In this document: positions 44,139-64,000 of the stretch, one piece after another
Layout: every line of letters starts with the position of its first letter
How positions within the stretch are numbered: position 1 is the stretch's first letter
Source: Methanoculleus formosensis
GTDB lineage: Archaea; Halobacteriota; Methanomicrobia; Methanomicrobiales; Methanoculleaceae
DNA: 64,000 nucleotides
NCBI RefSeq assembly: GCF_025384765.1
Contig: NZ_VHLL01000002.1
Location: 310,001 to 374,000, forward strand
Reading direction: 5' to 3'
The notes under the pieces: model-generated
Told to the model about the DNA's origin: nothing
Databases searched by the model: none
Seen by the model: the letters and a program-made list of their open reading frames with translations, nothing else
Made by a program: the position numbers and the translations under genes

Positions 44139-44145
44139 CCGTAGT

Positions 44146-44256: not shown

Positions 44257-44333
44257 GTAATAGTAGGGCAGCAACCGTAATAACGTTTCCGGTTTCCGAG
44301 CCGCGCTACGTTGATGCGCGGGCGGGGCGGGCT

Positions 44334-44660: not shown

Positions 44661-44681
44661 TGGCCCCCCTCACCCATCTTT

Positions 44682-44898: not shown

Positions 44899-44940
44899 AA
44901 TAAGATCCGCACTACCTCTTTTCGATGGGGGGTGGGGGTG

Positions 44941-45504
44941 ATGGCTACAGGCAAGTCGGCCGTCCTTCAAGCTCGGTACCCGGAGGATCTCAGGGTGGTT
45001 GGGCGTGCCCTCGGTGTGAACCTGAGCGAGGCGGCTGTACGGGGCGTGGTCCAGGCAATCTGCACTGCAGCCGGTATCGCCGGGCATGATTCGCTATCGC
45101 CTGATCTAGAAATCGCCCTTCTCGCGACCCTACGGTCACGGCGGGACGAGCTCACCTTGGAACTCGAGGAGCTCACCGAGTACATTACTCGGGTCGAAGG
45201 ACTTGAGGAGGCTCGAAAACAACAGGTAGCCGAGCGACAAAACGAGGCACGGCGCCAGCAGGAACGGGTGGCAACGTATGAGGCCATTGCGACGGCTAAG
45301 TGTCAATTCGACGCCGCGCTAAACTCTCTCTCAGATCAGACCCTCTCAGCACTTCGGGCATCCCTTGAGACTGATAATCTCGGAGACGTGGCTGCGACGG
45401 TGGCAGAGGATCTGGTGGCCCGGAACGGCCTGTCGATGCCTCCTGGTGCGGATCCCGCTCAGTGGCTCGTAGATCACCTGGTCGCTATGAGGGGGTCCGC
45501 ATGA
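44941..45504 (+). CDS. RHH-like/coiled-coil protein upstream of MCM
   Basis: 187 residues. The N-terminus (VLQARYPEDLRVVGRALG, then NLSEAAVRGVVQAI) has the strand-helix-helix pattern of a ribbon-helix-helix DNA-binding domain. Residues 60-115 form a long charged coiled coil, followed by a helical C-terminus. It overlaps the MCM start by four bases (ATGA) and follows the iteron block, so it is a candidate origin-binding or autoregulatory protein of the element. The role is inferred; the family is not recognised. Confidence 0.6.
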   Translation: MATGKSAVLQARYPEDLRVVGRALGVNLSEAAVRGVVQAICTAAGIAGHDSLSPDLEIALLATLRSRRDELTLELEELTEYITRVEGLEEARKQQVAERQNEARRQQERVATYEAIATAKCQFDAALNSLSDQTLSALRASLETDNLGDVAATVAEDLVARNGLSMPPGADPAQWLVDHLVAMRGSA

Positions 45505-47537: not shown

Positions 47538-47724
47538 TCTCAGGGAAGAAGAAGGCGCCATGCCTCTCAAAAACCACCTCTCCCCTGCCTTCCCCAATAT
47601 CAGATAACGGGGGCATCGTTTCAGGATGTCTCGAAAGGTGAAAGTTAGTGTTCACTCATCAAAGACAGGTCATCCGGGGATTAAAATCGCCAGTTTAAAG
47701 CATTGAAGCGATAAGGTGTTTCCT

Positions 47725-48126
47725 ATGGGTAAAAGGAAATATTATTCGCATCCCCATAGTTCGCACCGTGGTGAGTATCAGCCTCACAGTTATCGCCCTC
47801 ACGACCGGCATAAGGATAACCGGCAACCGAAGCAGAACCGGTCAACCCTTACAACAATATACCGAAGATTTGAGCGTTTCTCCTGGCGTCATCCAATTGC
47901 ATCTGTCGGGTTGTACCTATTTGTTGCCCTTGTCCTGTTCCGAATCGCGTTCCTCGACGCCTCGTTCGCGCCTTACACCCACCTTGACGAGATTCGTTTC
48001 TGGGTCGCTGTAATCGCTACGATAATGGTCGGCGTCGCGCTTTTATCAGCCCGTGCCTGGTGGAAACGGAATGTCCCAGACGTCAATATCCGGGGAACCG
48101 CGGACGTTACGTGGAGAAATAGGTAG
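47725..48126 (+). CDS. Small membrane protein with basic N-terminus
   Basis: 133 residues: a His/Arg/Tyr-rich hydrophilic start (MGKRKYYSHPHSSHRGEYQP), then two transmembrane segments (about 60-82 and 92-112) and a short tail. No family is recognised. ATG 47725 is preferred over GTG 47716. It is the last gene of the element before a stretch of hairpins. Confidence 0.55.
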   Translation: MGKRKYYSHPHSSHRGEYQPHSYRPHDRHKDNRQPKQNRSTLTTIYRRFERFSWRHPIASVGLYLFVALVLFRIAFLDASFAPYTHLDEIRFWVAVIATIMVGVALLSARAWWKRNVPDVNIRGTADVTWRNR

Positions 48127-48613
48127 CAAACCCATATTTTTCCAGTTGAATTTTGGAGTTATATCAAAGGAGCCACTGAAAGACGGTCAGAAACTCCGCC
48201 AATCGCGCTGTTCCGTCCACAAATTGCATTCGGTTGGAGTGCCAAAGATGCACCCATCACAACGACCTGTTTTGCTAGGACATAACGATCCGTTCCACAC
48301 AAATGTGGGGATGTCTTTGCCCTCCATTTTTGTGCCTGTGCCTAGTACCATGGTGGGGGATATTCTGTTAATATATTTTAATGTTTTGTATTCTGGGCGG
48401 GGGCGGAGCCCAGATGTCAAGAGTTAGCAGGGGCTCGCGGGGACACGCGGGAGCAGCGAGGCCGCCCCCGGTTTCAATCTCCAGAGGAAATTAGGTTCGC
48501 CTAAACTCAACTCAGATCAAAAGATAATATAGGGCCTGAACATGATATCTGTCTCTTTGCGTATAGTTTCCTAAGGAAATTTGGGGTTATATAAAGGCCC
48601 CACCGAAAGAAGG
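48127..48613. other. Gene-poor stretch with duplicated flank and possible right end of element
   Basis: Contains an imperfect 40-bp direct repeat (48149-48189 and 48577-48616) and a strong hairpin TCTGGGC/GCCCAGA at 48390-48412. CCCCGGTTTCAATC (48466-48479) resembles the tRNA-Phe T-arm. A minus-strand frame at 48187-48420 (77 residues) has no recognised family and may be a relic. Confidence 0.5.
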
Positions 48614-49684
48614 TCAATGACACCAGGCCGAGGCCACAAACGCCGCCAGCATCCCGTCCGCCACATCGGTTCCTCCCTGAGTCTCCAGAGCAAACAGGAT
48701 TGTTCGATCTGTGCGATCGCAATACCATCCTCCAAGATATCCTGCAATATGAACCTCATCTGGAGAGATCTCCTCATACACGGTGTCATACATGATCGGG
48801 ATATAGGTGACCGTGTGTCCGGTATCAAGAGCCCGCGTGTACTTCACACCAACGGCAAGGTTGGAGAATGTGGGATCCTTATTCAGATCGTTGATCCAGG
48901 TTGATAGGGCATCTGAGATCTCTGGGGTTTCTGTGCCCGAATACCACCAAGTAGCCATGATCGATTCGTGGACCCCAGAGTCCTGCACCGTCACCATACC
49001 GTCGTCGTAGGTATTCCAACCCGTTTCCGATTCGTCATCGTAAAGCCAGAGCCCTTTCGGGTACGAAAACGAGATACCATGCTTAGCATACGTATCCGTC
49101 GGGGAGTTTGCAGTTGAGTAGGTGTAATCGGACCATGCGGCAGAGGCCGTTGTGTATGAAGGGGTCTCTCTAGGAGATAGGGTGGGATCCATAACTACAA
49201 ATGCAGCAACGGAAGCAGCAACGAAAACCATTGCGAGGGTCAGGGCCAGCATTCCCAAGATCATCGGAGGATACCCCGGGGTGTCTGGCTTTGGGATCGG
49301 ATCAACCTTGAGGATATGCCGTTTGACTAGTTTTTTTATCCAGACCCAGAATAGAATGCCGATCACCGAGAAGATCAGGATCCCAAAACATTCGCCCATG
49401 AACCTTGCGGGATTGGTCGCGGGGAGCGATCCTACCGCTGCAATGACCAGGGAGGGGATGGTCCAAAATGCAATTGCCGCAAGCTCCGCTCCGGACTCCC
49501 AGAAGCGGAGGACATTTAAGAGGTAGGCCACGTAGAGCCCACAAAAGCAGAGGAGCAACAGGGCAAGCCCAAGACCCCCGATCACCTCTGATCCGGCAAA
49601 ACTTCCGATAGTGGCTATCAGGATTCCCGCCCCGCCTAGAACTAGCGACCCCAGGGCAACATTCTTTGGAGAGAATTGTGTCAT
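48614..49684 (-). CDS. Membrane protein with extracellular PsbP-like domain
   Basis: 356 residues: four hydrophobic segments near residues 8-30, 35-55, 68-88 and 98-118, a fifth near 145-168, then an extracellular domain of about 185 residues with AKHGISFSYPKGLWLYDD and VTVQDSGVHES, the look of a PsbP-like lipoprotein fold. Unknown function. It stands alone between the integrated element and the defence island. Its stop codon is part of a duplicated 40-bp segment. Confidence 0.6.
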   Translation of the reverse strand: MTQFSPKNVALGSLVLGGAGILIATIGSFAGSEVIGGLGLALLLLCFCGLYVAYLLNVLRFWESGAELAAIAFWTIPSLVIAAVGSLPATNPARFMGECFGILIFSVIGILFWVWIKKLVKRHILKVDPIPKPDTPGYPPMILGMLALTLAMVFVAASVAAFVVMDPTLSPRETPSYTTASAAWSDYTYSTANSPTDTYAKHGISFSYPKGLWLYDDESETGWNTYDDGMVTVQDSGVHESIMATWWYSGTETPEISDALSTWINDLNKDPTFSNLAVGVKYTRALDTGHTVTYIPIMYDTVYEEISPDEVHIAGYLGGWYCDRTDRTILFALETQGGTDVADGMLAAFVASAWCH

Positions 49685-50227
49685 TTAATTGTGCGAGGTA
49701 TTAATGTATTATATATTTTGTGTTTTGCATATATTCGTGTAAAGAGCGCTATATTGATAGTATAACTCAAAAATCCTCACCCTCCGCAGAGAGAGTTTGT
49801 GGTATCTTACTCATACCTGGCAGGGTGTCTACGGTGGGTGGCAGCGGGTGCCCAGAGTTGGTCTGGATATACCTTGCCCTGCAACGCACCTCAGTGCAGG
49901 CGAAACCCCCTCGATCCTATTCCTTGGTCGATTCTAAAAAGATCCGCGGCCATATCCCCATAGCGAGGCCACCCCTCGGCCGCATTTCCTGCTCCACAGG
50001 TAGAAGACAATCAATGAGCATCTGGGAGAGCGTCAGCAGATAAGAAGGTGCAAAAATCTTCCGGTCTACTGCCCAGAGCGGAAATCGTTGCCAGCCTCCC
50101 ACCTTCCAATGTATTGGGCCACAGGTTTGCTCTCAGAAACTATTGTTCTGCATATGCAACATAATTCACTCCAGGGAAGATTCGAAAGACTCTTCTTACA
50201 CAAGTTGAACCTTCCATCTGTTGTATT
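49685..50227. other. Gene-free stretch left of the defence island
   Basis: About 540 bases. The 49720-49770 part is AT-rich with TATA-like blocks. A minus-strand frame at 49917-50102 (61 residues, MGGWQRFPLWAVDRK) looks partly coding but has no family I recognise and could be a transposase relic. Confidence 0.4.
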
Positions 50228-53200
50228 ATGGCAGACATGCATGCGAATGACATTTTCAGCATAATAAAACCACGGGCAATCATAAAGGAGGGATCTCTTT
50301 TCCCCGAAGACGTTGAAGTTCTGACCGTAAGGTCGATTGGGGTATCCCTGAAGATAGAGGGCAAGGGTCGCAATTCCGGGCAGTCTTATACACGGTTTCT
50401 CAGCCCCCAACTCTTCGGCCAGATCGAGGTGTTCCCGGAGCATGAATCATTCAATGGTGACGCACACAAATTTCGGCTTGGAATTGAAGCACGGCGGCTG
50501 GGTCTTGCTTACGAATATGATCCATTTTTTTCCCTCTCAATAGCACGGATCGATCCTCTCCCCCACCAGCTGGAAGCAGTCTATGACTATTTCCTGAAGT
50601 TGCCCCGCATACGATTCCTCCTTGCCGATGATCCGGGTGCAGGAAAGACGATCATGGCAGGTCTGCTCATCAAGGAGCTGAAGATCCGGGGTCTTGTCAA
50701 GCGTATCTTGATCGTCACGCCCGCGAATCTCACCTTCCAGTGGATGCGCGAACTCAAGGAAAAATTCCGGGAGGATTTCAGTGTCGTGCGAGGTGAGATC
50801 CTCCGTGCGGCGTATGGATCGAATCCCTGGGATGAGCGAGATCAGGTTGTCACCTCGCTTCCCTGGATTGCGCGCATTGAAGATGCACAGCAGAGTTTGT
50901 TGAAGTCAAAGCGGTGGGATCTCATCATCGTGGACGAGGCACACAAAATGAGTGCCTCCTCAGAAGACAACAAAACGCTTGCCTACCGGATTGGGGAGGA
51001 ACTCTCCAAGATGACGGATCACTACCTGCTCATGACAGCGACGCCTCATAAAGGGGACAAAGAGAACTTCCGTCTCTTCCTTTCACTGCTCGATAAGGAC
51101 GTTTATGGGGACATTGAGAGCCTGGAGCGGGCGGTAAAGACACGGGAAGCACCGTTCTATCTCAGAAGAGTGAAAGAAGCGCTTGTCAACTTCCCGGATC
51201 CGGAGACGGGGAAAGTTACCAGTCTCTTCAGGAAGCGGAATGTGTACACCGTTCCCTTTGATATCGATGCCGATGAGATCGAATTCTACGACCATCTGAC
51301 TGCATACGTTGAGAAGCAATCCGTCAGGGCAGCGGCTGACGGTACCATCCGTGGCAGGGCGCTTGGGTTTACGATGGCAATGCTCCAGCGCCGTTTTGCC
51401 TCAAGCATCTATGCGGTACGCTGCACACTTGAGCGGATGTGCAACAAGCGCGAAGAAATCCTCCGTGATCCTGAAGCATACCGGAAGAAGGAGATCGACC
51501 GGCGTCTCCAGCGAGAACTGGACAAGCGTTTTGGTGGTGAAGAGGAGGTTATAGCCGATCTTTATGATGATGAACGGGAGCGGTTGCTGCTTGAATTCGA
51601 GGAGGCAGTCATCTCGTACAGGCCGGAGGACCTTCGGGAAGAGATATCTGACCTCTCCCTGCTTGTCGTAATGGCCAAACGCCTCGAAGAACGAGAAATC
51701 GAGACCAAGCTCGTCAAGCTCAAGGAGCAGCTGACCACCGAGGGCATCTTCACCGATCCCAAGATGAAGTTGCTCATCTTCACCGAGCACAAGGACACGC
51801 TGGTGTATCTGACCGAGAAGCTCCGTTCATGGGGGCTTACGGTCACGCAGATCCACGGCGGCATGAAGATCGGCGACCGCAATACGCCGGGCTCCCGGTT
51901 GTGCGCGGAGAAGGAGTTCCGGGACGATTGCCAGGTGTTGGTCGCGACCGAGGCGGCGGGCGAGGGTATCAACCTCCAGTTCTGCTGGTTTATGATCAAC
52001 TATGATATCCCCTGGAACCCGGTCCGGCTCGAGCAGCGGATGGGGCGTATTCACCGTTACGGACAGGAGAAGGACTGTCTGATTTACAACTTCGTGGCTC
52101 AGAACACCCGGGAGGGCAGGGTGATGGATAAACTCTTCACCCGGATCAGCCTGATCGAGGACGATCTCGACCCCGAGAGGACTGGGAAGATCTTTAACGT
52201 ACTCGGCGATGTCTTCCCGGCAAACCAGATCGAGCGCAAGCTCCGGGAGATGTATGCCCAGAGCCTTGAGGTACAGGAGATCATCTCCTGGATCACTGAC
52301 GAAACTGAGGCAGAGCGGTTCAAGCATATCACAAGTTCGACACTCGAAGGACTCGCCAAGACCCATCTCAACCTCTCTGCCATCATCGGCAAGCGGGAGG
52401 AGGCAAAAGAGCGCCGCCTTGTCCCTGAAGTGGTTGCAGATTTCTTTACCGCCGGCGGGAAGCTCTGCGGCCTCAGTCTACGGGAGATGAAGAACCCATC
52501 GGGGATATTCCGTCTGGGGCAGGTCCCGCGCCTGCTCGTCCCCATCGGCGAGACGCTCGCACCACAGTTCGGGACGCTGGGGCATGAGTACAAGGAGATC
52601 TGTTTCGACAAGGAGGTGCTCAAGGCCTATCCGAATATTGAGTGGGTCACTCCCGGCCACCCACTCTTCGAGACCGTCCGCCACTTTGTGCTCCGCGAGA
52701 CGGAGAACGATCTTCGTTCCGGAGCGGTCTTCTACGATCTGCACCGTGACATTCCGGCAGTCCTTGACGTCTTCTCGGCGGCGGTCACCGACGGTCTGAG
52801 CAATACGATGCACGAGCGTCTCTTCGTCCTGGAGCACGACGGGGGCGAGCATGCAAAAGTCCGCCAGCCGACGGTGTTCCTGGATGTTATCCCGGCAGAT
52901 GAACCCGTCGCAGTTCCCGATGTCCCGCTGCCCGACTACGAGGAGGTGGAAGCCCTGCTCTATGAGCGTGCCCTCATCCCCTTTCAGGAGGAGGTAGCGA
53001 ACGAACGCAGGCGTGAGGTGGCGATCATTCGCGCTCACCTGGAGACAAGCCTGCAGGAGCTGCTCATGCGGGAGAACTCCCGTAACATGGATCTGCACAA
53101 CCGGGAGCGTGCAGGGGACTCCGACCCGACGCTCCAGGCGCAGATTGCGAACTCCGATCGTCGTCTCGACGAACTCAATCGCCGCCTGAACGTCCGCAGA

Positions 53201-53716
53201 GCCGAACTTTCCAAGGAAGAAAGCCTCACGATCGGTGCCATCCGGCACTACGGGCGGGCGTGGGTGCTCCCCCATCCCGAGCGTAACGCGAACGGAATCC
53301 GGCGCATGCGCCGCGACGATGCGATCGAGCGGATTGCCGTCGATGCCGTGATCGCCTATGAGAATGCGCGTGGCTATGAGGTGGAGAGCGTTGAGGATCA
53401 GAACTGCGGCTATGACCTGAAATCCCGGAGGTTCGATCCCGACAATCCCGATACCGCGGTGGATCTCCGGTTTATCGAGGTGAAGGGGCGATCCGGCGTG
53501 GACGACGTCTTCCTCTCCGTCAATGAGTACAGGACGGCGGTGCGGCAGAAGGAGGACTACTGGCTCTACGTCGTCTACAACTGCGCGACACCCAACCCCG
53601 AGGTCTACCCGATCCGCAATCCCGCGACGATGGGATGGGAGCCGGTGGTGAAGGTGGAGCACTACCATGCGAACGCACGGGACATTCTGGGTGCAAGTGA
53701 AAAACTAAAGAAATAA
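50228..53716 (+). CDS. SNF2-type helicase with DUF3883 nuclease-like domain (DISARM DrmD-like)
   Basis: 1162-residue DNA translocase. Walker A DDPGAGKT (134-141), DEAH (236-239), TATPHKGD, the second RecA domain with VATEAAGEGINLQF and HRYGQEKD, then a long helical region and a C-terminal DUF3883 domain with GYDLKSRR and FIEVKGRSG, a PD-(D/E)xK-like pattern. The architecture is that of DrmD of class 1 DISARM and related anti-phage systems that pair a helicase with a DNA methylase. It likely remodels or scans incoming DNA. First gene of the defence island. Confidence 0.88.
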   Translation: MADMHANDIFSIIKPRAIIKEGSLFPEDVEVLTVRSIGVSLKIEGKGRNSGQSYTRFLSPQLFGQIEVFPEHESFNGDAHKFRLGIEARRLGLAYEYDPFFSLSIARIDPLPHQLEAVYDYFLKLPRIRFLLADDPGAGKTIMAGLLIKELKIRGLVKRILIVTPANLTFQWMRELKEKFREDFSVVRGEILRAAYGSNPWDERDQVVTSLPWIARIEDAQQSLLKSKRWDLIIVDEAHKMSASSEDNKTLAYRIGEELSKMTDHYLLMTATPHKGDKENFRLFLSLLDKDVYGDIESLERAVKTREAPFYLRRVKEALVNFPDPETGKVTSLFRKRNVYTVPFDIDADEIEFYDHLTAYVEKQSVRAAADGTIRGRALGFTMAMLQRRFASSIYAVRCTLERMCNKREEILRDPEAYRKKEIDRRLQRELDKRFGGEEEVIADLYDDERERLLLEFEEAVISYRPEDLREEISDLSLLVVMAKRLEEREIETKLVKLKEQLTTEGIFTDPKMKLLIFTEHKDTLVYLTEKLRSWGLTVTQIHGGMKIGDRNTPGSRLCAEKEFRDDCQVLVATEAAGEGINLQFCWFMINYDIPWNPVRLEQRMGRIHRYGQEKDCLIYNFVAQNTREGRVMDKLFTRISLIEDDLDPERTGKIFNVLGDVFPANQIERKLREMYAQSLEVQEIISWITDETEAERFKHITSSTLEGLAKTHLNLSAIIGKREEAKERRLVPEVVADFFTAGGKLCGLSLREMKNPSGIFRLGQVPRLLVPIGETLAPQFGTLGHEYKEICFDKEVLKAYPNIEWVTPGHPLFETVRHFVLRETENDLRSGAVFYDLHRDIPAVLDVFSAAVTDGLSNTMHERLFVLEHDGGEHAKVRQPTVFLDVIPADEPVAVPDVPLPDYEEVEALLYERALIPFQEEVANERRREVAIIRAHLETSLQELLMRENSRNMDLHNRERAGDSDPTLQAQIANSDRRLDELNRRLNVRRAELSKEESLTIGAIRHYGRAWVLPHPERNANGIRRMRRDDAIERIAVDAVIAYENARGYEVESVEDQNCGYDLKSRRFDPDNPDTAVDLRFIEVKGRSGVDDVFLSVNEYRTAVRQKEDYWLYVVYNCATPNPEVYPIRNPATMGWEPVVKVEHYHANARDILGASEKLKK

Positions 53717-53721
53717 TTACA

Positions 53722-54066
53722 GACCTCCACTCGTCCATGCTCAAGCAGGATCCGATAGATCGTATTGTGGGGAATATGCATCCTATACTCCTCTTCGATC
53801 TTCTTCTCGAGATGTGTGGGGCCGAGAGAATACTGGTCCTGAGCGGCCAGGACGAGAGTTTCAGTCTCGTGCGGGATCTGAGCAGGCTTTCTTCCCGGCG
53901 CTTGTGGATAGGGATACAAGCCGGTCTGCCGATACGCTGCGATAATCTGGTAGATTCTTTGCCTGCTGACGTGATGATAGTCCGCAAGGTCACGAATAGG
54001 CCGCCCTCTCTTCCACTGACGAGTGATACTTCGGATATCCCGGTCGGAGAGTTTGCTCACAGCCAT
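53722..54066 (-). pseudogene. IS481-like transposase, N-terminal fragment
   Basis: About 115 residues from MAVSKLSDRDIRSITRQWKR with HTH (PIRDLADYHHVSRQRIYQII), PGRKPA linker and HLEKKIEEEYRMHIPHNTIY, the N-terminal DNA-binding part of an archaeal IS481-type transposase. The catalytic DDE domain is missing; homology stops next to the end of the helicase gene. It is a decayed insertion that split the island. Confidence 0.75.
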
Positions 54067-54230
54067 ATATAAATCTGGTGTCAAATGATTTCGGGGTACT
54101 ACACCTCAAATTCCAATCAGAAAACCATAACAAGGAAATGATATCATCTGGATTATGAGAATTGAAATATCGTGAGCATCAATTCATCATCGATCACCGA
54201 AGAAATGTCTGGAAAAGGATGCCTGTAGTT

Positions 54231-54275
54231 GTGAGTTCTCACGACGATGTCGTCGTTTGGGGGATAAATAATATC
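54231..54275 (+). promoter_or_regulatory. Palindromic operator and TATA box of the SIR2-STAND gene
   Basis: GTGAGTTCTCAC (54231-54242, perfect inverted repeat) is followed by the near-palindrome ACGACGATGTCGTCGT (54241-54256) and the TATA box GGATAAATAATATC (54262-54275). The TATA is 30-35 bases from GTG 54301, fitting a leaderless transcript. The palindromes could bind a repressor. Confidence 0.55.
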
Positions 54276-54300
54276 ACGGGTGTCTAGGGGGGCGGATGCC

Positions 54301-57300
54301 GTGCTTATTTCTGAAGATCTGAAAGCGCGAATTGACATCGTCAGCCGGCATCTGTCCCTCGGTGCGGTAGTTGTGGTCGGAGCGGGACTCTCGATATCCA
54401 ACCGGTTTCCGGACACTGCAGGGCTCACGTCGCTGCTGTGGGATGCGCTCGACTTTGACATGGCCACCCGCAAAGAATTCGCTCAAGCGCTTGGACAAGC
54501 GGATGCCTCAGCGAAAGAGTTAGTTGGGGATAATAAGATAAATATCCTGGCAGCGTGGGCTGCGATTGCGTCCAGCATCCCGGCTAGAGCGAGATTCCAA
54601 AAGCAGTTCGCCGCCTTGGACGCACAACGGAGCGCCCAGCCGTCACGCGCTCACGAGGCTCTGGCCTGTCTAATTCACGCGGGAGTTGTTGAGTGTGTCG
54701 TCTCGTTGAACTGGGATACAGCCCTCGAAAGCGCGTACAAGAGGCTGTACGGAACCTCGCTCCCGGAAAACCTTCTGTTCAAACCACATGGAGATGCCGC
54801 CAAGCCCGACGATCCGTGGATACTCCCTCACGAGCCCGGTCTTATCCCACCAGAGGTCACTACTAAGGTGACACTCCTCGCTAGCGAACACGCCCGCACA
54901 TTACTCGTCATCGGATTCTCGGGGAGTGACCGTGTGGTCGTCGACGAGCTCATCAAACCACTGGATAGATCGTGGCGGACCGTGCGGGTTGGCCCCAACG
55001 CGACAGGATTGGATGATCTCACAGCCGGAGCGGAAACCGTGATCCCGCTACTCGCCGAACCATACGAGAATAGGGAGGATCACTCGTCTTGGTGCGCTAT
55101 GTCTTTCTCAGGTCGGCGTGACATCGAGGCTGCGCTCCGGGGAGAGCGCCTCGGGCCGCAAGACATATTCTCCTGTCCTGAGTTGGACGAGGTGGAAGTG
55201 CTCGCCCGATCACTCCGCATGGATAAGGCGGTCGTCCTCAATGGTCAGACCGGCTCGGGCAAATCGATCACTGCATACCAAGCCTTATACCGCCTGACCC
55301 GAGAAGGCTTCGAGATACTGCGTTTACGTGATAACGCCCGCACATGTAGTCTGCGCACGTTGTTGAATGACCTTGCGCAGTTTCCCCACAAGAAAGTGCT
55401 CCTTGTGGACGATGCCCAGGATATGTCCCCGGACACTGTGCGCGAGCTCGCCGAAGCCGCCGCCGCCGATTTACTCATCCTCATTGTCGGCATCGACCAT
55501 GTAGCAGGGGGTGTGCGGACGGTGCATCTCAGCGCACGCCTGGCAGTAGTCCGTCTTTCCCGGTTCGTCCGCGAGGAACGCGCGACTCTTTTCCCCCGCA
55601 TCCGCGATCTCGACAACAGTGTTGGCACTTTCCCTAACGACGTGTTCTTCGACCGTCGCATCGACGTTGCCGAGCGGCAGCTCACTTCCTGGCAGTTCTT
55701 CTACATCCTCACAGGTGGTTGGCGACGCGTCCGTCGCGATGCCATCGAACTGCGCGACAACAACCGTGCTGACGTGGCTCTCCTGGCAATCGCAGTCGCA
55801 CAAATCGCCGGAGTTGATGCCGGTGTTAAGCGGGACGAGTTGTTGGCGATGCTGAACGTACTCGGAAGGGACAATGTGTGGCTGGACAGCAGTCTGGACA
55901 CGCTACGCGCCAGAAAGCTCGTGACTGAGGCTGACGGTCGGCTGCGGTGCACCCACCTGGAAGCCGCCCTTCACATGGTCGCCTGGATGCTCCATCCACC
56001 TGAATCTCATTGCACGCTATCAAGCCCACGAGTCGAGATTCCACCCATCCCCTCGGCAACAGGCTCAGTAAAATCGGAACAAACCGCTGTCCCCTCGCCA
56101 AAAAAACCCCGGCAGGCTCCGCTCCTCTCCAAAGAGGAGATGGATGAGGATCGTGGCACAGCCTGCGCTCTTATAGAACTCGCCCTCGACTCTCCTAACA
56201 CACCCCTGCGAGGCTGCACGTGGCTCTCCGGCCAGAGGTTTATCGAGGACACTCACTGGATTCTCGTCTCTAAAGGCGTCCTGGCACCAGATCGTTACGA
56301 TAGGCTTGCCCATCGCGCTCTCTTAACCCCAACCGATGGCGATCTGGCTGCCGCCGCTCAACTCCTCTCAGAGATTGTCAAATATTCGTGCAGTTCCGTG
56401 ATGGACACGGTGAAAGCGCACGCGTCCCGCCTTTCGGACTGGTACGGTGTCATTTCACCGGAGAATGGTTGGGCGCTTGGCGATCTAGCCAATACCATAC
56501 ACAATGTCGACAAGAGCTTTGCGGCCGAACTTGCCGGATACACAGATCCCCAACGACTCGCGAATCTCGTCCTCGACGGGGGGTGGCCGCATATCTACTC
56601 GACGTCTCACGCCCTTGATCGGATATGTACCGCCGACGGTATACCCGTCCGTGGGGCGGTTGCTGCGGAGTTAGATGAAGATGCGTATAAGCATATGCTC
56701 TCAACCGGCAACCCGAACCTGAGTGACGCGGCCCTTCTCATCGAAAACATTGCCTCGGCGGATCCCGACCTGTCCCTCCGTCTTTTTGAGTATGCAGCCC
56801 CGATGCTTGCTCACCAATTCGTCGACAACCCAGTACGCCAATGGAGCGAGATATCGGAATGTGTAATGTTCGTGCTGGGCTATGCACCGGATTTCTTACG
56901 CGTCCGTAAACGCCCTCTAGCTAACTGCCGGAGAGTCGCACAGTCGTTCATCAGAGCGCTCGACCGTAATAGGGTCGCCGAAACGATCGCCGGTCCGAGC
57001 GACCAGTGGGCGCAGATGAACTTCCACGAATTCATCCGTTTCCTATCTGAAGCCGATCCCACTACTTTTGCGGATATCGTCGACCGCGTTGATATGACCG
57101 CATTTGAGAAGTCCCTCCGATCTCATCCTGAGAAACCCTGCAAAACAGCGTTATACGTATGCGCCTGTCTGTGGGAGAACAGGCCCGACCCAATCCATGA
57201 CCTTCTCGACCGGCTCGAACCTGACCTTGCTCATCTGGATTCGCTTTTCGTATATATGGCGCCCGACGTAGCATGCCGTGCCCTGCTGCGCGGGTTGCCA

Positions 57301-57735
57301 CTCGATCTCGAACTTGACCACGACCGCTGGGGCTGGGCTGCAAGTGTTCTCGCGAGGCTCCACCAGCACAACCCCCAGGTGGCACGAGAGGTCGCCCACG
57401 CTAATCGCGAAGGAATTAAGGCAGGACTTATTATTAGTAAAAAGTCCGATCCATTAGAAGGGCTGAATAAGTGGGTCTCCGAGTGCGATCGGATCGCCCC
57501 CGGACTGATCGACTCCGTCATCAGCGACCTTCCGAAAGGGGCGGTTACTGCGTGGGGGGGCGTTATCACGCGATCAGTGAAGCACCGCCGCACCCGACGC
57601 AAGGAGATCGCCCCGCTCGTGCATCGAGCAGCACGCGCGAGCGGACACGTTCAGATGGAGGCCAAAGCGCTGCTAGTGAGGTTCCCAGCTCTCGCACACG
57701 AAGGACCTACCGGCACGACCGCACCCTCACCTTGA
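54301..57735 (+). CDS. SIR2-STAND anti-phage-type protein
   Basis: 1144 residues. Residues 1-260 are a SIR2 NADase-like domain: GAGLS (27-31), catalytic-type SLNWD (135-139), KPHGD with H163 (161-165) and IGFSGSD (204-210). Residues 290-480 are a STAND/AAA NTPase: GQTGSGKS (315-322) and LLVDDAQ (367-373). The remaining 650 residues are helical and probably sense a target. Family knowledge: such proteins deplete NAD+ upon phage sensing and kill the infected cell. GTG 54301 is preferred to GTG 54280 from the TATA position. The 3' end runs into IS66 sequence. Confidence 0.85.
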   Translation: MLISEDLKARIDIVSRHLSLGAVVVVGAGLSISNRFPDTAGLTSLLWDALDFDMATRKEFAQALGQADASAKELVGDNKINILAAWAAIASSIPARARFQKQFAALDAQRSAQPSRAHEALACLIHAGVVECVVSLNWDTALESAYKRLYGTSLPENLLFKPHGDAAKPDDPWILPHEPGLIPPEVTTKVTLLASEHARTLLVIGFSGSDRVVVDELIKPLDRSWRTVRVGPNATGLDDLTAGAETVIPLLAEPYENREDHSSWCAMSFSGRRDIEAALRGERLGPQDIFSCPELDEVEVLARSLRMDKAVVLNGQTGSGKSITAYQALYRLTREGFEILRLRDNARTCSLRTLLNDLAQFPHKKVLLVDDAQDMSPDTVRELAEAAAADLLILIVGIDHVAGGVRTVHLSARLAVVRLSRFVREERATLFPRIRDLDNSVGTFPNDVFFDRRIDVAERQLTSWQFFYILTGGWRRVRRDAIELRDNNRADVALLAIAVAQIAGVDAGVKRDELLAMLNVLGRDNVWLDSSLDTLRARKLVTEADGRLRCTHLEAALHMVAWMLHPPESHCTLSSPRVEIPPIPSATGSVKSEQTAVPSPKKPRQAPLLSKEEMDEDRGTACALIELALDSPNTPLRGCTWLSGQRFIEDTHWILVSKGVLAPDRYDRLAHRALLTPTDGDLAAAAQLLSEIVKYSCSSVMDTVKAHASRLSDWYGVISPENGWALGDLANTIHNVDKSFAAELAGYTDPQRLANLVLDGGWPHIYSTSHALDRICTADGIPVRGAVAAELDEDAYKHMLSTGNPNLSDAALLIENIASADPDLSLRLFEYAAPMLAHQFVDNPVRQWSEISECVMFVLGYAPDFLRVRKRPLANCRRVAQSFIRALDRNRVAETIAGPSDQWAQMNFHEFIRFLSEADPTTFADIVDRVDMTAFEKSLRSHPEKPCKTALYVCACLWENRPDPIHDLLDRLEPDLAHLDSLFVYMAPDVACRALLRGLPLDLELDHDRWGWAASVLARLHQHNPQVAREVAHANREGIKAGLIISKKSDPLEGLNKWVSECDRIAPGLIDSVISDLPKGAVTAWGGVITRSVKHRRTRRKEIAPLVHRAARASGHVQMEAKALLVRFPALAHEGPTGTTAPSP

Positions 57736-57976
57736 GCGAGAAATCCTGGCACTCTTGAGAGATTTCACCATGCCCTTCACCAATAATCAGGCCGAACGCG
57801 ATCTCCGAATGATGAAACTGCAGCAGAAGATCTCCGGAACATTCCGGAGTGAAGAAGGCGCTCGGAACTTCCGTAGGGTCAGAGGATTCATAGCAACCGT
57901 CAAGAAGCACGACCGCCCGGTATTATCGGAACTGGGGGAGGGTATTCGAAGGGATGCCCTTCGTCCCGAAGACGGC
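57731..57976 (+). pseudogene. IS66-family transposase, C-terminal fragment
   Basis: About 80 residues from LEREILALLRDFTMPF, with NNQAERDLRMMKLQQKISG and RNFRRVRGFIATVKK, the conserved C-terminal end of IS66 transposases. The rest is missing. Homology begins in the last bases of the SIR2-STAND gene in another frame, so the insertion or deletion joined the two. The frame runs on to 58189, but that part has no homology to a transposase. Confidence 0.8.
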
Positions 57977-58011
57977 TCACCTGATACACTGAACAGTTAC
58001 GAAATAATTGC

Positions 58012-58764
58012 CTATTCTTTATTTTTTATAGGTGGATTCTCACGGCAATCCTTGAAATACTCGCGTATTGTCGACCTGAGATCATCACGAGACCGTTTGA
58101 ATTCTTTGTATGCAAGGAAGATGCGTGCAGCATCACCGAGCGCACGATGCGGTTTGATCTTTGATTCATATGTTTTTTGGATGGAATAGTCAAAATTTTT
58201 CGATCTGAAGCAATTGTTGCTGACGTCAATGCCCAGAGCATACGAAACCCGGTCGAGTGACAAGAGTTTTTCCATCTTCAGTGCATCCTTGATTTTATCC
58301 TGGATGTCAAGGAACTGGAGATTTTTCGTATCGAATTTTGCCCGTGCGATGGCCGCCATCTCCATTCGTTTAGAGAAAAACACCATCGTCTGGATATGGT
58401 GCTCCCTGGTGAGCTTCGTAAGATAGGTATTCAGGTCAGCGTATGCAGACCACGTGACCTCAAGTGCAGGTTGGAGATCCTCCATTTCGAGGGTGTACTC
58501 CTTATCGTAGGGTAACTGGTACTGTTCCTTTGCGACGTTTGCGCAGGTGGTGGTGGATCCTGCCGTTCGTTTAAGGTCGTCGGTAGTATTTTTCCACATT
58601 TCAACGACGATATCTTTCTTGATCTTCCTTTGAGACGTTGATATCGAATCTTTTTGGCGATCATAGAGCAGGACGCCGACTTCAATCGGCATATAGATGA
58701 GTTTCTTCGTTCCATAGACGTGACCGAACTCCATATCGATGAATGCCATTTCCTGGACAACCAT
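58012..58764 (-). CDS. Putative DEDDh-type exonuclease
   Basis: 250 residues with an RNase H-like exonuclease pattern: FIDMEFG (D10, E12) near the start and HRALGDA (H206, D211) near the end, the DxE and HxxxxD motifs of DEDDh 3'-5' exonucleases. A candidate middle Asp is D145 or D153. The middle is long and Lys/Glu-rich and differs from known polymerase-type proofreading domains. It is on the opposite strand to the rest of the island, between the IS66 fragment and the methylase. Family placement is an inference from motifs. Confidence 0.6.
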   Translation of the reverse strand: MVVQEMAFIDMEFGHVYGTKKLIYMPIEVGVLLYDRQKDSISTSQRKIKKDIVVEMWKNTTDDLKRTAGSTTTCANVAKEQYQLPYDKEYTLEMEDLQPALEVTWSAYADLNTYLTKLTREHHIQTMVFFSKRMEMAAIARAKFDTKNLQFLDIQDKIKDALKMEKLLSLDRVSYALGIDVSNNCFRSKNFDYSIQKTYESKIKPHRALGDAARIFLAYKEFKRSRDDLRSTIREYFKDCRENPPIKNKE

Positions 58765-58874
58765 TTTAGCGCCAGGGGAGTTATCAGGGCTCCGTTTACA
58801 AAAATGAATTCATTTGATTGTAGCAATCATGGTAATTCACAGCAGTTATAAGCTGACGCACACATGTTTTTACA

Positions 58875-61757
58875 ATGGATGCCTACCCCAAACGACTCAT
58901 CGAAGTCGATCTTCCAATAAAGCAGATATCCGAACATGCCCGGCGCGAGAAATCCATCCGCCACGGCCACATATCCACGCTCCATATCTGGTGGGCGCGC
59001 CGGCCGCTCGCCGCCTGCCGGGCGGTGCTCTGTGCAGCGCTCTGGCCGGACCCTGCCGATCCACTCTGCCCGAAGGAGTTCATCATCACCGCGACGGAAC
59101 AGATGGACCGGTTCTGGAACACGCTTGATGCGACCAACTACGATCTCTCCGACCTCACCGTGCTCCGGCGGGCGCTCCTGGACTTCATCGCTGACTTTGC
59201 AAACTGGGATAACACCACCGACGAGCGCTACCTCTCGACTGCCCGGACCCTGACCGGATCCGCCCATGTCGCCCTCGGGGGCCAGCCTGGCACCCGGCCG
59301 CTCGTGGTGGATCCCTTCGCCGGCGGCGGTGCGATCCCGCTCGAGGCGCTGCGGGTCGGTGCGGATGCGTTCGCCTCCGATCTCAACCCGGTCGCGGTGC
59401 TGCTCAACAAGGTGGTGCTCGAGTACATCCCGAAGTACGGTCAGGAGCTCGCCGATGAGGTGAGGAAGTGGGGACAGTGGGTAAAGGAGGAGATGGAGAA
59501 GGATCTAGCCGAGTTCTACCCGAAAGATCCGGACGGGGCGACGCCGATTGCATATCTCTGGGCACGGACGATCACCTGTGAGAATCCGGCGTGTGGGGCG
59601 GAGGTGCCGCTCATCCGGTCGCTGTGGCTCGCGAAGAAGAAGGGGCGTTCGGTGGCGCTGAAGTTGATCCCAAATAAAGATGAGAAGCGAGTGGACTTCG
59701 AGATCGTGGAGAATCCGAAGGCATCCGAAGTTCAGGACGGGACAGTAGCACGTGGATCTGCCACCTGCCCAGTCTGTGGATATACAACTCCAGTGGAGTC
59801 AATACGGGCTCAATTTAAGACGAGACGTGGGGGAGCCGCGGATGCGCGGCTGTTCTGTGTAGTGACGACGCGGCCCGGGCAGCAGGGGCGGTTCTATCGA
59901 CTACCAAATAAAAGAGATTTAGAGGGTGTGGAAAAAGCCTCGGAGATGATAAAGCGGCGAAAGGAAGAATGGACTGGCAAATTAAGTCTTGTGCCAGATG
60001 AGCCTTTACCGCCCCAAGGCACACTTGGATTCCGCGTTCAGGGGTATGGCATGAAAGAGTGGGGTGATCTCTTCACGCCAAGACAAATTCTAGCATTGAC
60101 ATCTCTGATTCAGCTATTGAATGACCTCTATGAGACAAATAAAGAAGAAAATCTATTTAGAGCAATATGCACTTGCTTGAGCCTTGCTATAGATAAGCAA
60201 GTAGATAGTAACTCCTCTCTTTGTGCTTGGCGGGCCGTAAGTGAGGATATAGGGCACACATTTGGGCGCCAAGCTCTCCCCATGGTTTGGGATTTTGTTG
60301 AGGCAAATGTAGTTAGTGGGTCTACAAGGGATTGGGGTAACGCGGTTGAGGGTGTTTTAAAGGCACTCGAATGTTTGGATGACGGAATCAATGTAGGACA
60401 TGCCGAAAAAGCATCGGCAACAAAATTACTGTTGCCTGATGATTCAGCGCATTCATTCTTTACGGATCCGCCTTACTATGATGCCATTCCATATTCAGAC
60501 TTGTCTGATTTTTTCTATGTTTGGTTAAAGCGATCCGTCCCTCTGTCCTCATTAAACATGTTCAATGAAACCAGAGCACCAAAAGATGAGGAATGCATCG
60601 TTGATCCCATAAAAGGAAAAGACAAGCAATATTTTGAAAGAACAATGACAGATGCAATGGCAGAAGGGCGCCGAATTCTGGTTCCTAATGGAATTGGGTG
60701 CATCGTTTTTGCCCATAAGTCAACTGCTGGGTGGGAGGCAATGCTAAACTCTATGGTAGAAGCGGGTTGGATCGTCACTGGTTCATGGCCAATTGACACC
60801 GAATTGGCAAACAGATTGCGTGGCTTGAACTCCGCCGCCCTCGCCTCCTCCATCCACCTCGTCTGCCGTCCCCGCGAGAATCCCGACGGTTCGCTCCGCA
60901 CAGAAGACGTGGGCGACTGGGGCGCCGTGCTCAAAGAACTCCCGCCACGGATCCATGAGTGGATGGAGCGCCTCTCCTCCGAGAACGTCGTCGGTGCCGA
61001 CGCGATCTTTGCCTGCCTTGGTCCGGCGCTCGAAATTTACTCACGCTACTCGAGGGTCGAGAAGGTCTCCGGTGAAGAGGTGACGCTCGGGGAATACCTC
61101 GAGCATGTCTGGGCAACAGTCTCCCGGGAGGCACTCTCAACGATCTTCCAGGGCGCCGATACCGAGGGGTTCGAACCCGACGCCCGGCTCACGGCGATGT
61201 GGCTCTGGACGCTCTCCGCCGGGAACGGGAACGGGAACGGCAACGGAGATGGGGAAGATGCCCAGAAGAGCACCGGCTACTCGCTTGAGTACGACACCGC
61301 CCGCAAGATCGCCCAGGGTCTCGGGGCGCACCTCGACCAGCTGCCCGGTCTGGTCGGAATCAAGGGCAGCGAAGCCCACCTGCTGCCGGTAAGGGAGAGA
61401 GGGGACTATCTCTTCGGCCGCGGTGGCCTGTCCGCCCCGCAGAAGGCGAAACCGATCGGCAAGCAGCTCACCCTCGGAGGCGAATCGGTGGGCGGCGCCT
61501 ACGAGGCGGTAAGCATCAGGGATGCGGCGACGCTCGAGTTCACCGGCGAGACCACGCTCGACCAGGTGCACCAGGCCATGCTCCTCTTCGCCGCAGGCCG
61601 GGGCGATGCACTCGGACGATTCCTGAGAGAGGACATCGGTCGTGACCAGAAGTTTGCGAAACTCGCCCAGGCACTCTCCGCCCTCTACCCTGCCACCTCT
61701 GAGGAGCGGCGGTGGGTTGACGGCGTGCTCGCGAGGAAGAAGTCGCTTGGCCTGTGA
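58875..61757 (+). CDS. DUF1156 DNA methylase of the defence island
   Basis: 960-residue SAM-dependent DNA methyltransferase. Residues 1-60 are DUF1156 (LIEVDLPIKQISEHARREKS, HIWWARRP). The SAM-binding loop DPFAGGG is at 146-152 and the catalytic TDPPY motif at 530-534, the N6-adenine/N4-cytosine type. A zinc-ribbon-like CxxC pair lies between. Such methylases mark host DNA in DISARM-like systems. The low-GC part (about 59905-60830) suggests replacement of the target-recognition and catalytic middle by recombination. A long C-terminal region with a repeated Gly-Asn stretch follows. Confidence 0.88.
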   Translation: MDAYPKRLIEVDLPIKQISEHARREKSIRHGHISTLHIWWARRPLAACRAVLCAALWPDPADPLCPKEFIITATEQMDRFWNTLDATNYDLSDLTVLRRALLDFIADFANWDNTTDERYLSTARTLTGSAHVALGGQPGTRPLVVDPFAGGGAIPLEALRVGADAFASDLNPVAVLLNKVVLEYIPKYGQELADEVRKWGQWVKEEMEKDLAEFYPKDPDGATPIAYLWARTITCENPACGAEVPLIRSLWLAKKKGRSVALKLIPNKDEKRVDFEIVENPKASEVQDGTVARGSATCPVCGYTTPVESIRAQFKTRRGGAADARLFCVVTTRPGQQGRFYRLPNKRDLEGVEKASEMIKRRKEEWTGKLSLVPDEPLPPQGTLGFRVQGYGMKEWGDLFTPRQILALTSLIQLLNDLYETNKEENLFRAICTCLSLAIDKQVDSNSSLCAWRAVSEDIGHTFGRQALPMVWDFVEANVVSGSTRDWGNAVEGVLKALECLDDGINVGHAEKASATKLLLPDDSAHSFFTDPPYYDAIPYSDLSDFFYVWLKRSVPLSSLNMFNETRAPKDEECIVDPIKGKDKQYFERTMTDAMAEGRRILVPNGIGCIVFAHKSTAGWEAMLNSMVEAGWIVTGSWPIDTELANRLRGLNSAALASSIHLVCRPRENPDGSLRTEDVGDWGAVLKELPPRIHEWMERLSSENVVGADAIFACLGPALEIYSRYSRVEKVSGEEVTLGEYLEHVWATVSREALSTIFQGADTEGFEPDARLTAMWLWTLSAGNGNGNGNGDGEDAQKSTGYSLEYDTARKIAQGLGAHLDQLPGLVGIKGSEAHLLPVRERGDYLFGRGGLSAPQKAKPIGKQLTLGGESVGGAYEAVSIRDAATLEFTGETTLDQVHQAMLLFAAGRGDALGRFLREDIGRDQKFAKLAQALSALYPATSEERRWVDGVLARKKSLGL
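59905..60830. other. Low-GC block inside the DUF1156 methylase gene
   Basis: Line counts: 19 of 60 G/C at 60121-60180, against 43 of 60 at 59341-59400 and 41 of 60 at 60841-60900. The right edge is sharp near 60830 and the left edge is gradual between about 59690 and 59905. The reading frame is intact throughout. It covers the DPPY motif and surrounding recognition region. Confidence 0.75.
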
Positions 61758-61827
61758 AAATACAAATCAGTCATTTTATGGAACGATTTATACGATCTCT
61801 ATCGTAACAAGAAAGAGGGAATGTTGG

Positions 61828-64000
61828 ATGGCAATGAAACCCTGGTATAAAGTGGTCACGCCGCGGGAAGATCTGCGGGAAGGAAGGCCACAGGACGCAT
61901 CGGAATTCGCCGTGCACCTCGATAAGGTGCGGGAGGGCTCGGCGCCCCGCGACTATCAGGACCCGCGCCGGTTCTTCGAGCGGACGTATCTCACCGAGAC
62001 GCTCTGCTCGTTCGCAGCAGATGTCGTCGCCCGCCTCTCCGGCAAGACGGTCGAGACGAGCGCCGTATACAACCTGACGACACAGTTCGGAGGCGGAAAG
62101 ACCCACGCGCTCACCCTCGCGTACCACCTTGCCCGTGCCGGATCGAAGGCATATGCCTGGCCGGGTGTCATGGAGATTGCAAATAAGGCCGGTGTATCCA
62201 CCCTCCCCGAAGCTGCCACTGCCATCTTCGTCGGCACCGAGTTTGACTCGCTCACCGGCAGGGGTGGCGAGGATGGCACGCCGCTCCGCAAGACTCCGTG
62301 GGGCGAGATCGCCTTCCAGCTTGGTGGATCCGAGGCCTTCGAGAAAGTCCGTGAGCACGACGAGCGGATGGTTGCACCGGGCGGAGATGTCATCCGCTCT
62401 ATCCTCCCGAAGGATAAGCCAAGCCTCATCCTCATGGACGAGATCGTCAACTACACCAACCGCTCCCGCAAGCTCAAGAACGGCATGGCAGAACAACTCT
62501 ACGTCTTCATCCACAACCTCTCCGAAACGGCTCGAAGCACTCAGGGAATTGTTCTTGCCATCTCCGTCCCTGCTTCTGAACTCGAGATGACCACCGATGA
62601 CCAGGGCGACTACATTAAACTCGAAAAACTTCTTGAGCGGGTCGGGAAAGCCTATATTATGTCCGCGCGGTCCGAGACCGCCGAGATCATCCGCCGTCGC
62701 CTCTTCGAGTGGGAGGGGGTCCCCTCTGACGCAAAGACCACCATCGCCGAGTACGCCGACTGGGTCCGGGAGTACCGCCATACGATCCCGAACTGGTTCC
62801 CTGTCGACCAGCCTTACGAACCGTTCGAAGCGACCTACCCCTTCCACCCCATGGCGCTCTCGGTTTTTGAGCGTAAATGGCAGGCGTTGCCCACGTTCCA
62901 GCAGACACGCGGCGTATTGAAACTCCTCGCCCTCTGGGTCTCGTACGCTTACCAGAAGAGTTACCGCAAGGGCGAGAAGGCACCGCTCATCACGCTCGGC
63001 TCAGCACCACTTGAGGACCCCCTCTTCCGGGCTGCTGCCCTCAAGCAGATCGGTGAAGGCAGGTTTGAAGGTGTCATCACCACGGATATCTGTGGCAACG
63101 CCAATTCCCATGCGACCCGCCTGGACGATGAAGCAGGGGAACCCATCCGGTCGCATCATCTCCACCAGAGCGTGGCCACCACCATCTTCTTCGAGTCGAT
63201 CAGTGGGGGTGCAGGCCGGACCGCTGCCACACTACCCGAGGTCCGGCTGGCAGTCGGGGGTCCCGGTGTGGACACCGCCAACATCGACACCGTTCTGGAA
63301 GGACTCGCACCCCCTACTGGAAACTGCTTTTTCCTCAACGCCGAAAATAACATCTACCGGTTCGGGGTCAAGACGAACCTTATCAAGATCCATGCGGACC
63401 GAAAAGCCAGCATCGACGAGAGGGAAATCCACACCCTCGTCAAGGAGAACGTCAGGAAGGTGTTCGACCAGGCGTCTACAGTCGAACGGGTCTACTTCCC
63501 GAAACGGAGCGGCGATGTGATGGACAAGCCAGCCATTATGCTGGCTGTGATGGCACCGAACAGGGAGACCACCAGCGAAGAAACCAGAACGATGGTGCTT
63601 GAGTTCTCCAAGCATCATGGCGAAGCAGGCAGAACCTACAAGAGCGCGCTCATCTGGTCGATGGCGTCCGATTCGAGCAGTCTCTACGAAGCAGCACGTG
63701 ATCACCTCGCTTGGAAGGAGATTTCAGATGAGGCAGATGCCCTCAACCTCGATGAAGGGCAGCGTAAACAGGTGCGGCAATACACTGAATCCTCAAAGCG
63801 GGCCATCAAGGAGAAGGTCTGGGAAGCTTACAACATGATCGGTCTCTACACTGAGAGAGATGACATCGAGTTTATCGATCTCGGCCGGATCAATTCCAGT
63901 GCATCTGAGTCGATCACACGCCTCATCACCACCAGATTGAACCAACTGGAGAAGCTTACTGGCACCGTCGGTTCGAACTTCCTTGTGCGCAACTGGTCAC
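61828..64000 (+). CDS. DUF499 ATPase, C-terminus beyond the window
   Basis: At least 724 residues of a large AAA-type ATPase of the DUF499 family. Walker A FGGGKTH (about 87-93), Walker B LILMDEIVNY (about 199-208), then a helical region with SLFVRNW-type end missing. ATG 61828 follows GAGGGAATGTTGG. The family occurs beside DUF1156 methylases in defence islands and is thought to be the system's NTPase core. It starts 70 bases after the methylase and is probably in the same operon. Cut by the right edge. Confidence 0.87.
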   Translation, partial: MAMKPWYKVVTPREDLREGRPQDASEFAVHLDKVREGSAPRDYQDPRRFFERTYLTETLCSFAADVVARLSGKTVETSAVYNLTTQFGGGKTHALTLAYHLARAGSKAYAWPGVMEIANKAGVSTLPEAATAIFVGTEFDSLTGRGGEDGTPLRKTPWGEIAFQLGGSEAFEKVREHDERMVAPGGDVIRSILPKDKPSLILMDEIVNYTNRSRKLKNGMAEQLYVFIHNLSETARSTQGIVLAISVPASELEMTTDDQGDYIKLEKLLERVGKAYIMSARSETAEIIRRRLFEWEGVPSDAKTTIAEYADWVREYRHTIPNWFPVDQPYEPFEATYPFHPMALSVFERKWQALPTFQQTRGVLKLLALWVSYAYQKSYRKGEKAPLITLGSAPLEDPLFRAAALKQIGEGRFEGVITTDICGNANSHATRLDDEAGEPIRSHHLHQSVATTIFFESISGGAGRTAATLPEVRLAVGGPGVDTANIDTVLEGLAPPTGNCFFLNAENNIYRFGVKTNLIKIHADRKASIDEREIHTLVKENVRKVFDQASTVERVYFPKRSGDVMDKPAIMLAVMAPNRETTSEETRTMVLEFSKHHGEAGRTYKSALIWSMASDSSSLYEAARDHLAWKEISDEADALNLDEGQRKQVRQYTESSKRAIKEKVWEAYNMIGLYTERDDIEFIDLGRINSSASESITRLITTRLNQLEKLTGTVGSNFLVRNWS

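What the first reader, a model, noticed from the sequence alone, without database searches (positions are those of the whole stretch)
50228..64000. Composite defence island: DrmD-like helicase, SIR2-STAND, DEDDh-like nuclease, DUF1156 methylase, DUF499 ATPase
A SNF2/DUF3883 helicase, a DUF1156 DNA methylase and a DUF499 ATPase recur together in prokaryotic defence islands and resemble class 1 DISARM parts, but no drmA, drmB or drmC is present up to the right edge. Here the helicase is separated from the methylase by a SIR2-STAND gene, a reverse-strand exonuclease and two transposase fragments. Either a DISARM-like system was interrupted by insertions, or the SIR2 and nuclease genes are working parts of a new arrangement. 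The full extent lies beyond the window.
Basis: partly seen in the sequence, partly recalled or inferred. Interest (0 to 1): 0.8.

Follow-up and report, generated by a model that had tools for sequence, protein, structure and literature searches.

The report
Hma defence operon on integrated element
An archaeal integrated mobile element carries a known three-gene anti-virus system (Hma: helicase, methylase, ATPase) that has been split by an unrelated single-gene immune sensor and some transposon debris, so it is an ordinary system with an unusual passenger rather than a broken DISARM or a new machine.

Summary
Helicase, DUF1156 methylase and DUF499 ATPase are HmaA, HmaB and HmaC (PADLOC 643, 460 and 424 bits), the Hma or 'Type-1 BREX-related' system. 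DrmD scores well below its cut-off and drmA, drmB and drmC are absent. Extending the contig shows the set is cargo of a 29.4 kb element integrated in tRNA-Phe: a 22-bp att repeat, an exact empty site in a congener, an integrase and an MCM helicase. A sister element in another species carries a different Hma at the same place.

The SIR2-STAND and the exonuclease-like gene are not constant partners. The SIR2-STAND is absent from the other 231 genomes of the class; its two full-length bacterial relatives stand alone. The exonuclease family is an ordinary gene of the lineage. None of 28 other Hma loci carries either. However, 15 of those 28 carry some other accessory gene inside the operon (TIR, GmrSD, YhcG, DUF4062 and others).

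Best reading: an intact Hma restriction-modification-like system, interrupted by an IS-associated insertion of an Avs5-like NAD-depleting sensor that works independently or, at most, as a backup effector.

The parts
43109..64000 (.). Left and central part of an integrated mobile element; it continues to extended position 72468 (contig position 382468)
   Evidence: 22-bp repeat of the tRNA-Phe 3' end at 43087-43108 and 72447-72468; exact empty site in congener G053; GC falls from 0.65 to about 0.5 and recovers
43035..43108 (+). tRNA-Phe gene; last 22 bases = attL
   Evidence: ARAGORN; repeat
43648..43992 (+). HTH_17 excisionase-like DNA-binding protein of the element
   Evidence: Pfam PF12728 E=8.7e-11; homologue in sister element
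45462..47537 (+). MCM replicative helicase of the element
   Evidence: Pfam PF00493 E=5e-89; 80% identical copy in the sister element of G050
50228..53716 (+). hmaA: SNF2 helicase with C-terminal NOV_C (PD-(D/E)XK-type) nuclease domain
   Evidence: PADLOC HmaA 642.8 bits over 73-1153 against 394.3 for the best DrmD; NOV_C; D...EVK motif conserved
53662..54084 (-). Degenerate IS481/IS630-type transposase N-terminal fragment; single copy in genome
   Evidence: NCBIfam NF033577 positions 5-109 of 284
54280..57735 (+). SIR2-STAND single-gene immune protein (Avs5-like layout): SIR2 about 25-240, STAND NTPase about 300-410, helical repeats about 420-1140
   Evidence: GAGLS, NWD and HG motifs and Walker A kept in relatives; nSTAND models just below cut-off
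57755..57937 (+). Remnant of IS66 transposase C-terminus; single copy in genome
   Evidence: NCBIfam NF033517 positions 321-381 of 387
58012..58764 (-). DEDDh-type exonuclease-like gene, an unrelated passenger
   Evidence: D10, E12, D110, H206, D211 conserved in the family; family in 74 of 232 genomes away from Hma
58875..61757 (+). hmaB: DUF1156 adenine-type DNA methyltransferase with DPPY motif
   Evidence: PADLOC HmaB 460 bits; PF06634; DPPY read from the sequence
61828..64000 (+). hmaC: DUF499 AAA+ ATPase, continues to extended position 64791
   Evidence: PADLOC HmaC 423.7 bits; NCBIfam NF042962; Walker A GGGKT and B LMDE

Best explanation
The region is the cargo of an integrative element sitting in tRNA-Phe. 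The cargo's core is one cognate Hma (Type-1 BREX-related) system. By analogy with the published family, HmaB methylates self DNA, the HmaC ATPase is thought to build a scanning complex on unmodified invading DNA, and HmaA translocates and cuts it with its C-terminal nuclease domain. Between hmaA and hmaBC an IS-associated insertion brought a stand-alone SIR2-STAND gene of bacterial type. It probably senses a virus protein with its helical C-terminus, oligomerises through the STAND NTPase and depletes NAD+ (Avs5-like). A lineage-specific DEDDh exonuclease-like gene lies there on the opposite strand. Shown: gene identity, kept catalytic motifs, element borders, cognate halves, no constant association. 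Inferred: all biochemical activities, and that SIR2-STAND works independently of Hma.
For: Near full-length HmaA, HmaB and HmaC matches. Hma and Type-1 BR literature. HmaA and HmaC 83.6% and 81.5% identical to G016. att repeat, empty site and right-end integrase with 83 bits. Sister element in G050 with a different Hma between the same MCM and recombinase genes. SIR2-STAND in 1 of 232 class genomes; relatives in Rhodococcus (41%) and Streptomyces (46%) without Hma within the DNA held. DEDDh family elsewhere in 74 genomes, including a second copy in this genome. Of 28 other Hma loci none has either gene.
Against: Accessory defence genes inside hma operons are common, and TIR and DUF4062 proteins occur at the B|C junction, so a functional link of a SIR2-STAND to Hma cannot be excluded. 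HmaA scores lower than canonical members (643 against about 2000 bits), so this is a divergent branch. No activity was measured.
Confidence: 0.82

Rival explanations
1. SIR2-STAND is a recruited backup effector of this Hma system. It shares the island and perhaps the hmaA transcript, and kills or stalls the cell by NAD+ depletion when the primary restriction is overcome.
For: Co-oriented with hmaA. 16 of 29 Hma loci carry at least one substantial accessory gene inside the operon, including TIR and DUF4062 proteins. The BR literature proposes backup suicidal nuclease effectors.
Against: 563 bp and an IS fragment separate it from hmaA, whereas most accessory genes in relatives sit tightly between hma genes. 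Its full-length relatives stand alone. Present in one genome of the class.
Confidence: 0.12
2. An interrupted class 1 DISARM system (drmD, drmMI) that lost drmA, drmB and drmC.
For: The helicase has sub-threshold DrmD similarity and a methylase is nearby.
Against: HmaA, HmaB and HmaC all fit far better; no drmA, drmB or drmC in the element; DUF499 is not a DISARM part; DrmD cut-off missed, 354 against 610 bits.
Confidence: 0.02
3. SIR2-STAND, DEDDh, methylase and ATPase form a new composite system in which the exonuclease and NADase are obligatory parts.
For: Physical co-location only.
Against: DEDDh gene in opposite orientation and from a widespread chromosomal family; SIR2-STAND unique in the class; IS remnants around the insertion.
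Confidence: 0.03

Closest known systems
Hma system (HmaABC) = Type-1 BREX-related (BR) system (PMC8565338; PMC12839542)
   Same: SNF2 helicase with C-terminal PD-(D/E)XK-type domain, DUF1156 methylase, DUF499 ATPase; no DUF3780, HKD or PglZ gene found
   Different: hmaA is 5.2 kb away from hmaBC; HmaA, HmaB and HmaC form a divergent branch with an extra Ig/FnIII-like stretch near the HmaC C-terminus (sequence reading)
Avs5 (AVAST type 5, SIR2-STAND; PMC12931631)
   Same: N-terminal SIR2 with GAGxS, NxD and HG motifs, STAND NTPase, C-terminal helical repeats
   Different: No Avs5 model in PADLOC hit it; nSTAND3 just below cut-off; a separate sequence family with actinobacterial relatives
DISARM class 1 (DrmD, DrmMI, DrmA, DrmB, DrmC)
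   Same: Both have a SNF2 helicase and a DNA methylase
   Different: drmA, drmB and drmC absent; helicase and methylase belong to other families; DUF499 ATPase present
tRNA-integrated archaeal elements with MCM and tyrosine recombinase
   Same: att repeat in the 3' end of a tRNA gene, integrase at one end, MCM replication gene, excisionase-like HTH
   Different: Defence cargo; two tyrosine recombinase genes (66795-67397 and 71114-72532 in extended coordinates)

Membership tests
Hma / Type-1 BR | HmaA, HmaB and HmaC all present | tested here: met
   643, 460 and 424 bits, near full length for HmaA
Hma / Type-1 BR | Three genes adjacent as an operon (usual layout; not treated as excluding) | tested here: inconclusive
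   hmaBC adjacent, hmaA separated by 5.2 kb; enlarged or split loci are common among undoubted Hma loci, so strict adjacency is not a defining feature in practice
Hma / Type-1 BR | Helicase with C-terminal active PD-(D/E)XK domain | tested here: met
   NOV_C E=4e-21; D...EVK motif conserved in relatives; activity untested
Hma / Type-1 BR | DUF1156 amino-methyltransferase with catalytic motif | tested here: met
   PF06634 over cut-off; DPPY present
Hma / Type-1 BR | No DUF3780/HKD (Type-2) and no PglZ (Type-3) | tested here: met
   No such Pfam hit among the larger proteins of the element
Hma / Type-1 BR | Anti-virus activity | not testable with these tools
   -
DISARM class 1 | DrmD above curated cut-off | tested here: not met
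   353.8 bits, cut-off 610
DISARM class 1 | drmA, drmB, drmC | tested here: not met
   None among the larger proteins of the element; the only MZB (DUF1998) protein in the genome is 1815 aa and DruE-like, 350 kb away
DISARM class 1 | DrmMI-type methylase | tested here: not met
   Methylase is HmaB, no DrmMI hit
Avs5 | SIR2 GAGxS, NxD and HG motifs | tested here: met
   G34-S38, N144/D146, H170-G171, kept in relatives
Avs5 | nSTAND3-type NTPase | tested here: inconclusive
   25.3 bits, cut-off 27.2; nSTAND5 31.1, cut-off 34
Avs5 | C-terminal structural repeats | tested here: inconclusive
   All-helical 420-1134 in a low-confidence model, pLDDT 52
Avs5 | Match to Avs5 sequence models | tested here: not met
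   PADLOC gave only Aga_SIR2 and PDC-S65, weakly
DEDDh exonuclease | DxE, D and HxxxxD acidic/His motif | tested here: met
   D10, E12, D110, H206, D211 conserved or nearly so in 11 sequences
DEDDh exonuclease | Profile or fold match to a known DEDDh family | tested here: inconclusive
   No Pfam or PDB profile match; fold model too poor, pLDDT 36
tRNA-integrated element | att repeat, empty site, integrase | tested here: met

The most novel reading that the evidence does not exclude
The inner junctions of archaeal hma operons act as docking sites for exchangeable backup effectors, and here an Avs5-like SIR2-STAND NADase has docked as a guard that fires when the Hma restriction complex is blocked by a virus, a NAD-depleting layer that the main text of the main BR survey does not describe.
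Probability: 0.12. Interest if true: 0.6.

Novelty: new member of a known kind. Interest (0 to 1): 0.33.

Why it matters
It turns a puzzling composite island into three known things: an Hma system, an Avs5-like sensor and an integrative element. It also shows that archaeal hma operons often carry other defence genes between their core genes, which makes a testable series of natural Hma variants. If the inserted sensors guard Hma, that would link restriction-type and abortive defence.

Tried and rejected
DISARM: rejected on model scores and missing parts. Conserved SIR2/DEDDh partnership: rejected. Relatives in viral contigs for HmaB and SIR2-STAND: none. Single-sequence genome scan with SIR2-STAND: nothing; the two-sequence scan found one Streptomyces relative. 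DEDDh in plasmids: none. PDB and Pfam searches with the DEDDh profile: nothing. Structure models of DEDDh (pLDDT 36) and SIR2-STAND (pLDDT 52) were too poor to search with. Sigma-70 promoter scan at the split: no more than in shuffles and the wrong promoter type for an archaeon. Further copies of the two IS pieces: none in the genome, so the mode of insertion is not reconstructed.

Full report
Check of the observation. Family searches give: 50228-53716, SNF2 helicase with C-terminal NOV_C; 54280-57735, SIR2-STAND; 58012-58764 on the minus strand, no library match; 58875-61757, DUF1156 methylase; DUF499 ATPase from about 61828 to 64791, so it runs past the window. The two transposase remnants are real: an N-terminal IS481/IS630-type piece and a 61-residue C-terminal IS66 piece. 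Neither has a second copy in the genome.

What the core is. PADLOC assigns the helicase to HmaA with 643 bits over residues 73-1153; the best DrmD model gives 394. The methylase is HmaB (460 bits) and the ATPase HmaC (424 bits). The curated DISARM DrmD cut-off is missed, 354 against 610 bits. Hma was defined as a helicase-methylase-ATPase operon in PMC8565338. A 2026 survey, PMC12839542, recasts it as the DUF499-centred 'Type-1 BR' system. That type has a C-terminal PD-(D/E)XK nuclease on the helicase, a DUF1156 methylase, no DUF3780 and no PglZ, and the locus fits it. The nuclease motif (D, then EVK), the DPPY methylase motif and the ATPase Walker motifs are intact. Activities were not tested.

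One system, split. The closest relative, genome G016, has HmaA at 83.6% and HmaC at 81.5% identity to the window's. The HmaB tail on its second contig looks equally close by eye. So hmaA and hmaBC are cognate, and the 5.2 kb between them was inserted or exchanged. In G016 the place right after hmaA is held by a different gene, an HD-domain protein overlapping hmaA by 4 bp.

The element. The contig runs 218 kb beyond the window. The last 22 bases of tRNA-Phe (43087-43108) recur at extended position 72447-72468. GC drops from about 0.65 to 0.5 between them. A tyrosine integrase (82.9 bits) lies beside the right copy. In congener G053 the tRNA-Phe 3' end is followed directly by the sequence that starts at 72469 here, at 87-95% identity, which is an empty site. 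The element is therefore 43109-72468, 29.4 kb. It has an HTH excisionase-like gene, MCM, a second recombinase gene (66795-67397) and a few further proteins (PEGA, CAP, TPR). Genome G050 carries a sister element: MCM 80%, recombinase 79%, and related small genes, with a different, canonical Hma (HmaA about 33% identical) between them. Hma is thus exchangeable cargo of this element family.

The SIR2-STAND. It keeps the SIR2 motifs GAGxS, NxD and HG, and Walker A, in an alignment with its relatives. It occurs in no other of 232 genomes of the class. Full-length relatives are a Rhodococcus plasmid protein (41%) and a Streptomyces protein (46%); no Hma protein was detected in the 10-16 kb held around them, though the Rhodococcus gene lies within 1 kb of the end of its linear plasmid. 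More distant plasmid proteins (Janthinobacterium, Klebsiella) share the NTPase and C-terminal half but have another N-terminus. That is the modular pattern of STAND immune proteins. The layout matches Avs5, whose SIR2 domain hydrolyses NAD+ on sensing an early phage protein (PMC12931631), but no Avs5 model matched, so membership is not claimed.

The exonuclease-like gene. Its family has conserved D, E, D, H, D positions of the DEDDh type. It occurs in 74 of 232 genomes of the class, with a second copy on another contig of this genome. The four relatives' neighbourhoods examined hold no Hma gene and look like ordinary chromosome. It runs against hma transcription. It is best read as a passenger.

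Are extra genes inside hma operons meaningful? I measured hmaA-hmaC distances in 31 co-located pairs: 20 have at least 1 kb more than hmaB needs. Reading 29 loci including the window, 16 have at least one substantial accessory gene between the core genes. These include GmrSD, YhcG, TIR, SDH-type protease, DUF4062, AAA+DUF4276, sacsin-like ATPase, Schlafen-type and DUF3800 proteins. The count of 16 is my reading, leaving out small or implausible frames; the script's raw count of loci with any extra frame of 100 aa or more is 18. Most of these accessory genes are co-oriented and many are tightly spaced. None of the 28 other loci has a SIR2-STAND or the DEDDh gene. The published survey notes nucleases near or within the loci; its main text does not mention SIR2 or TIR. 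A looser principle remains open: hma operons gather exchangeable defence genes.

How it most likely works. HmaB marks self DNA; HmaC is thought to assemble on unmarked DNA; HmaA translocates and cuts. This rests on the family literature. The split probably makes hmaA and hmaBC two transcripts, because the gene just upstream of hmaB is on the opposite strand; this is inference. SIR2-STAND probably acts alone as a virus sensor that depletes NAD+.

Limits. Only proteins of about 100 aa or more were scanned, and the smallest frames of the element were not. Accessory genes in other loci were called mechanically.

Noticed in passing
L120/L121 (contig C2:5773-20703, outside the window): A second defence island in the same genome: a DruE-like 1815-aa helicase (439 bits), a DrmMI-like methylase (286 bits) next to a DrmD-like helicase, and a HerA-like gene. 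The DISARM/Druantia-like parts of this genome are there.
   Followed up: partly
L067/L042/L066 (G050 C8, about 5.0-37 kb): Sister integrative element with 80% identical MCM and 79% identical recombinase carrying a different Hma, an N6 methylase and a DEAD/MZB helicase as cargo.
   Followed up: partly
L034-L036, L041-L047, L049, L104-L108: The inner junctions of hma operons hold many different accessory defence genes (GmrSD, YhcG, TIR, DUF4062, AAA+DUF4276, sacsin-like and others).
   Followed up: yes
L116:9557-10366: A frame with IIILGAGASKSEGAP near its start, a SIR2-like motif, lies directly downstream of hmaC in G350; no Pfam hit.
   Followed up: no
L063:7428-10499 and L064:4682-7804: Plasmid proteins share the STAND core and C-terminus of the window's SIR2-STAND but have another N-terminus that looks like a PD-(D/E)XK nuclease (VQCKGK): an effector swap.
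   Followed up: partly
extended 72469-75150 (right of the element): In most congeners tRNA-Phe is followed directly by the sequence at about 75150, so another 2.7 kb stretch beside the tRNA looks like a second insertion; G053 shares it.
   Followed up: partly
L109 (G286) and L047 (G197): hmaB in G286 and hmaA in G197 are interrupted in their coding regions, so decayed hma operons exist in relatives.
   Followed up: no
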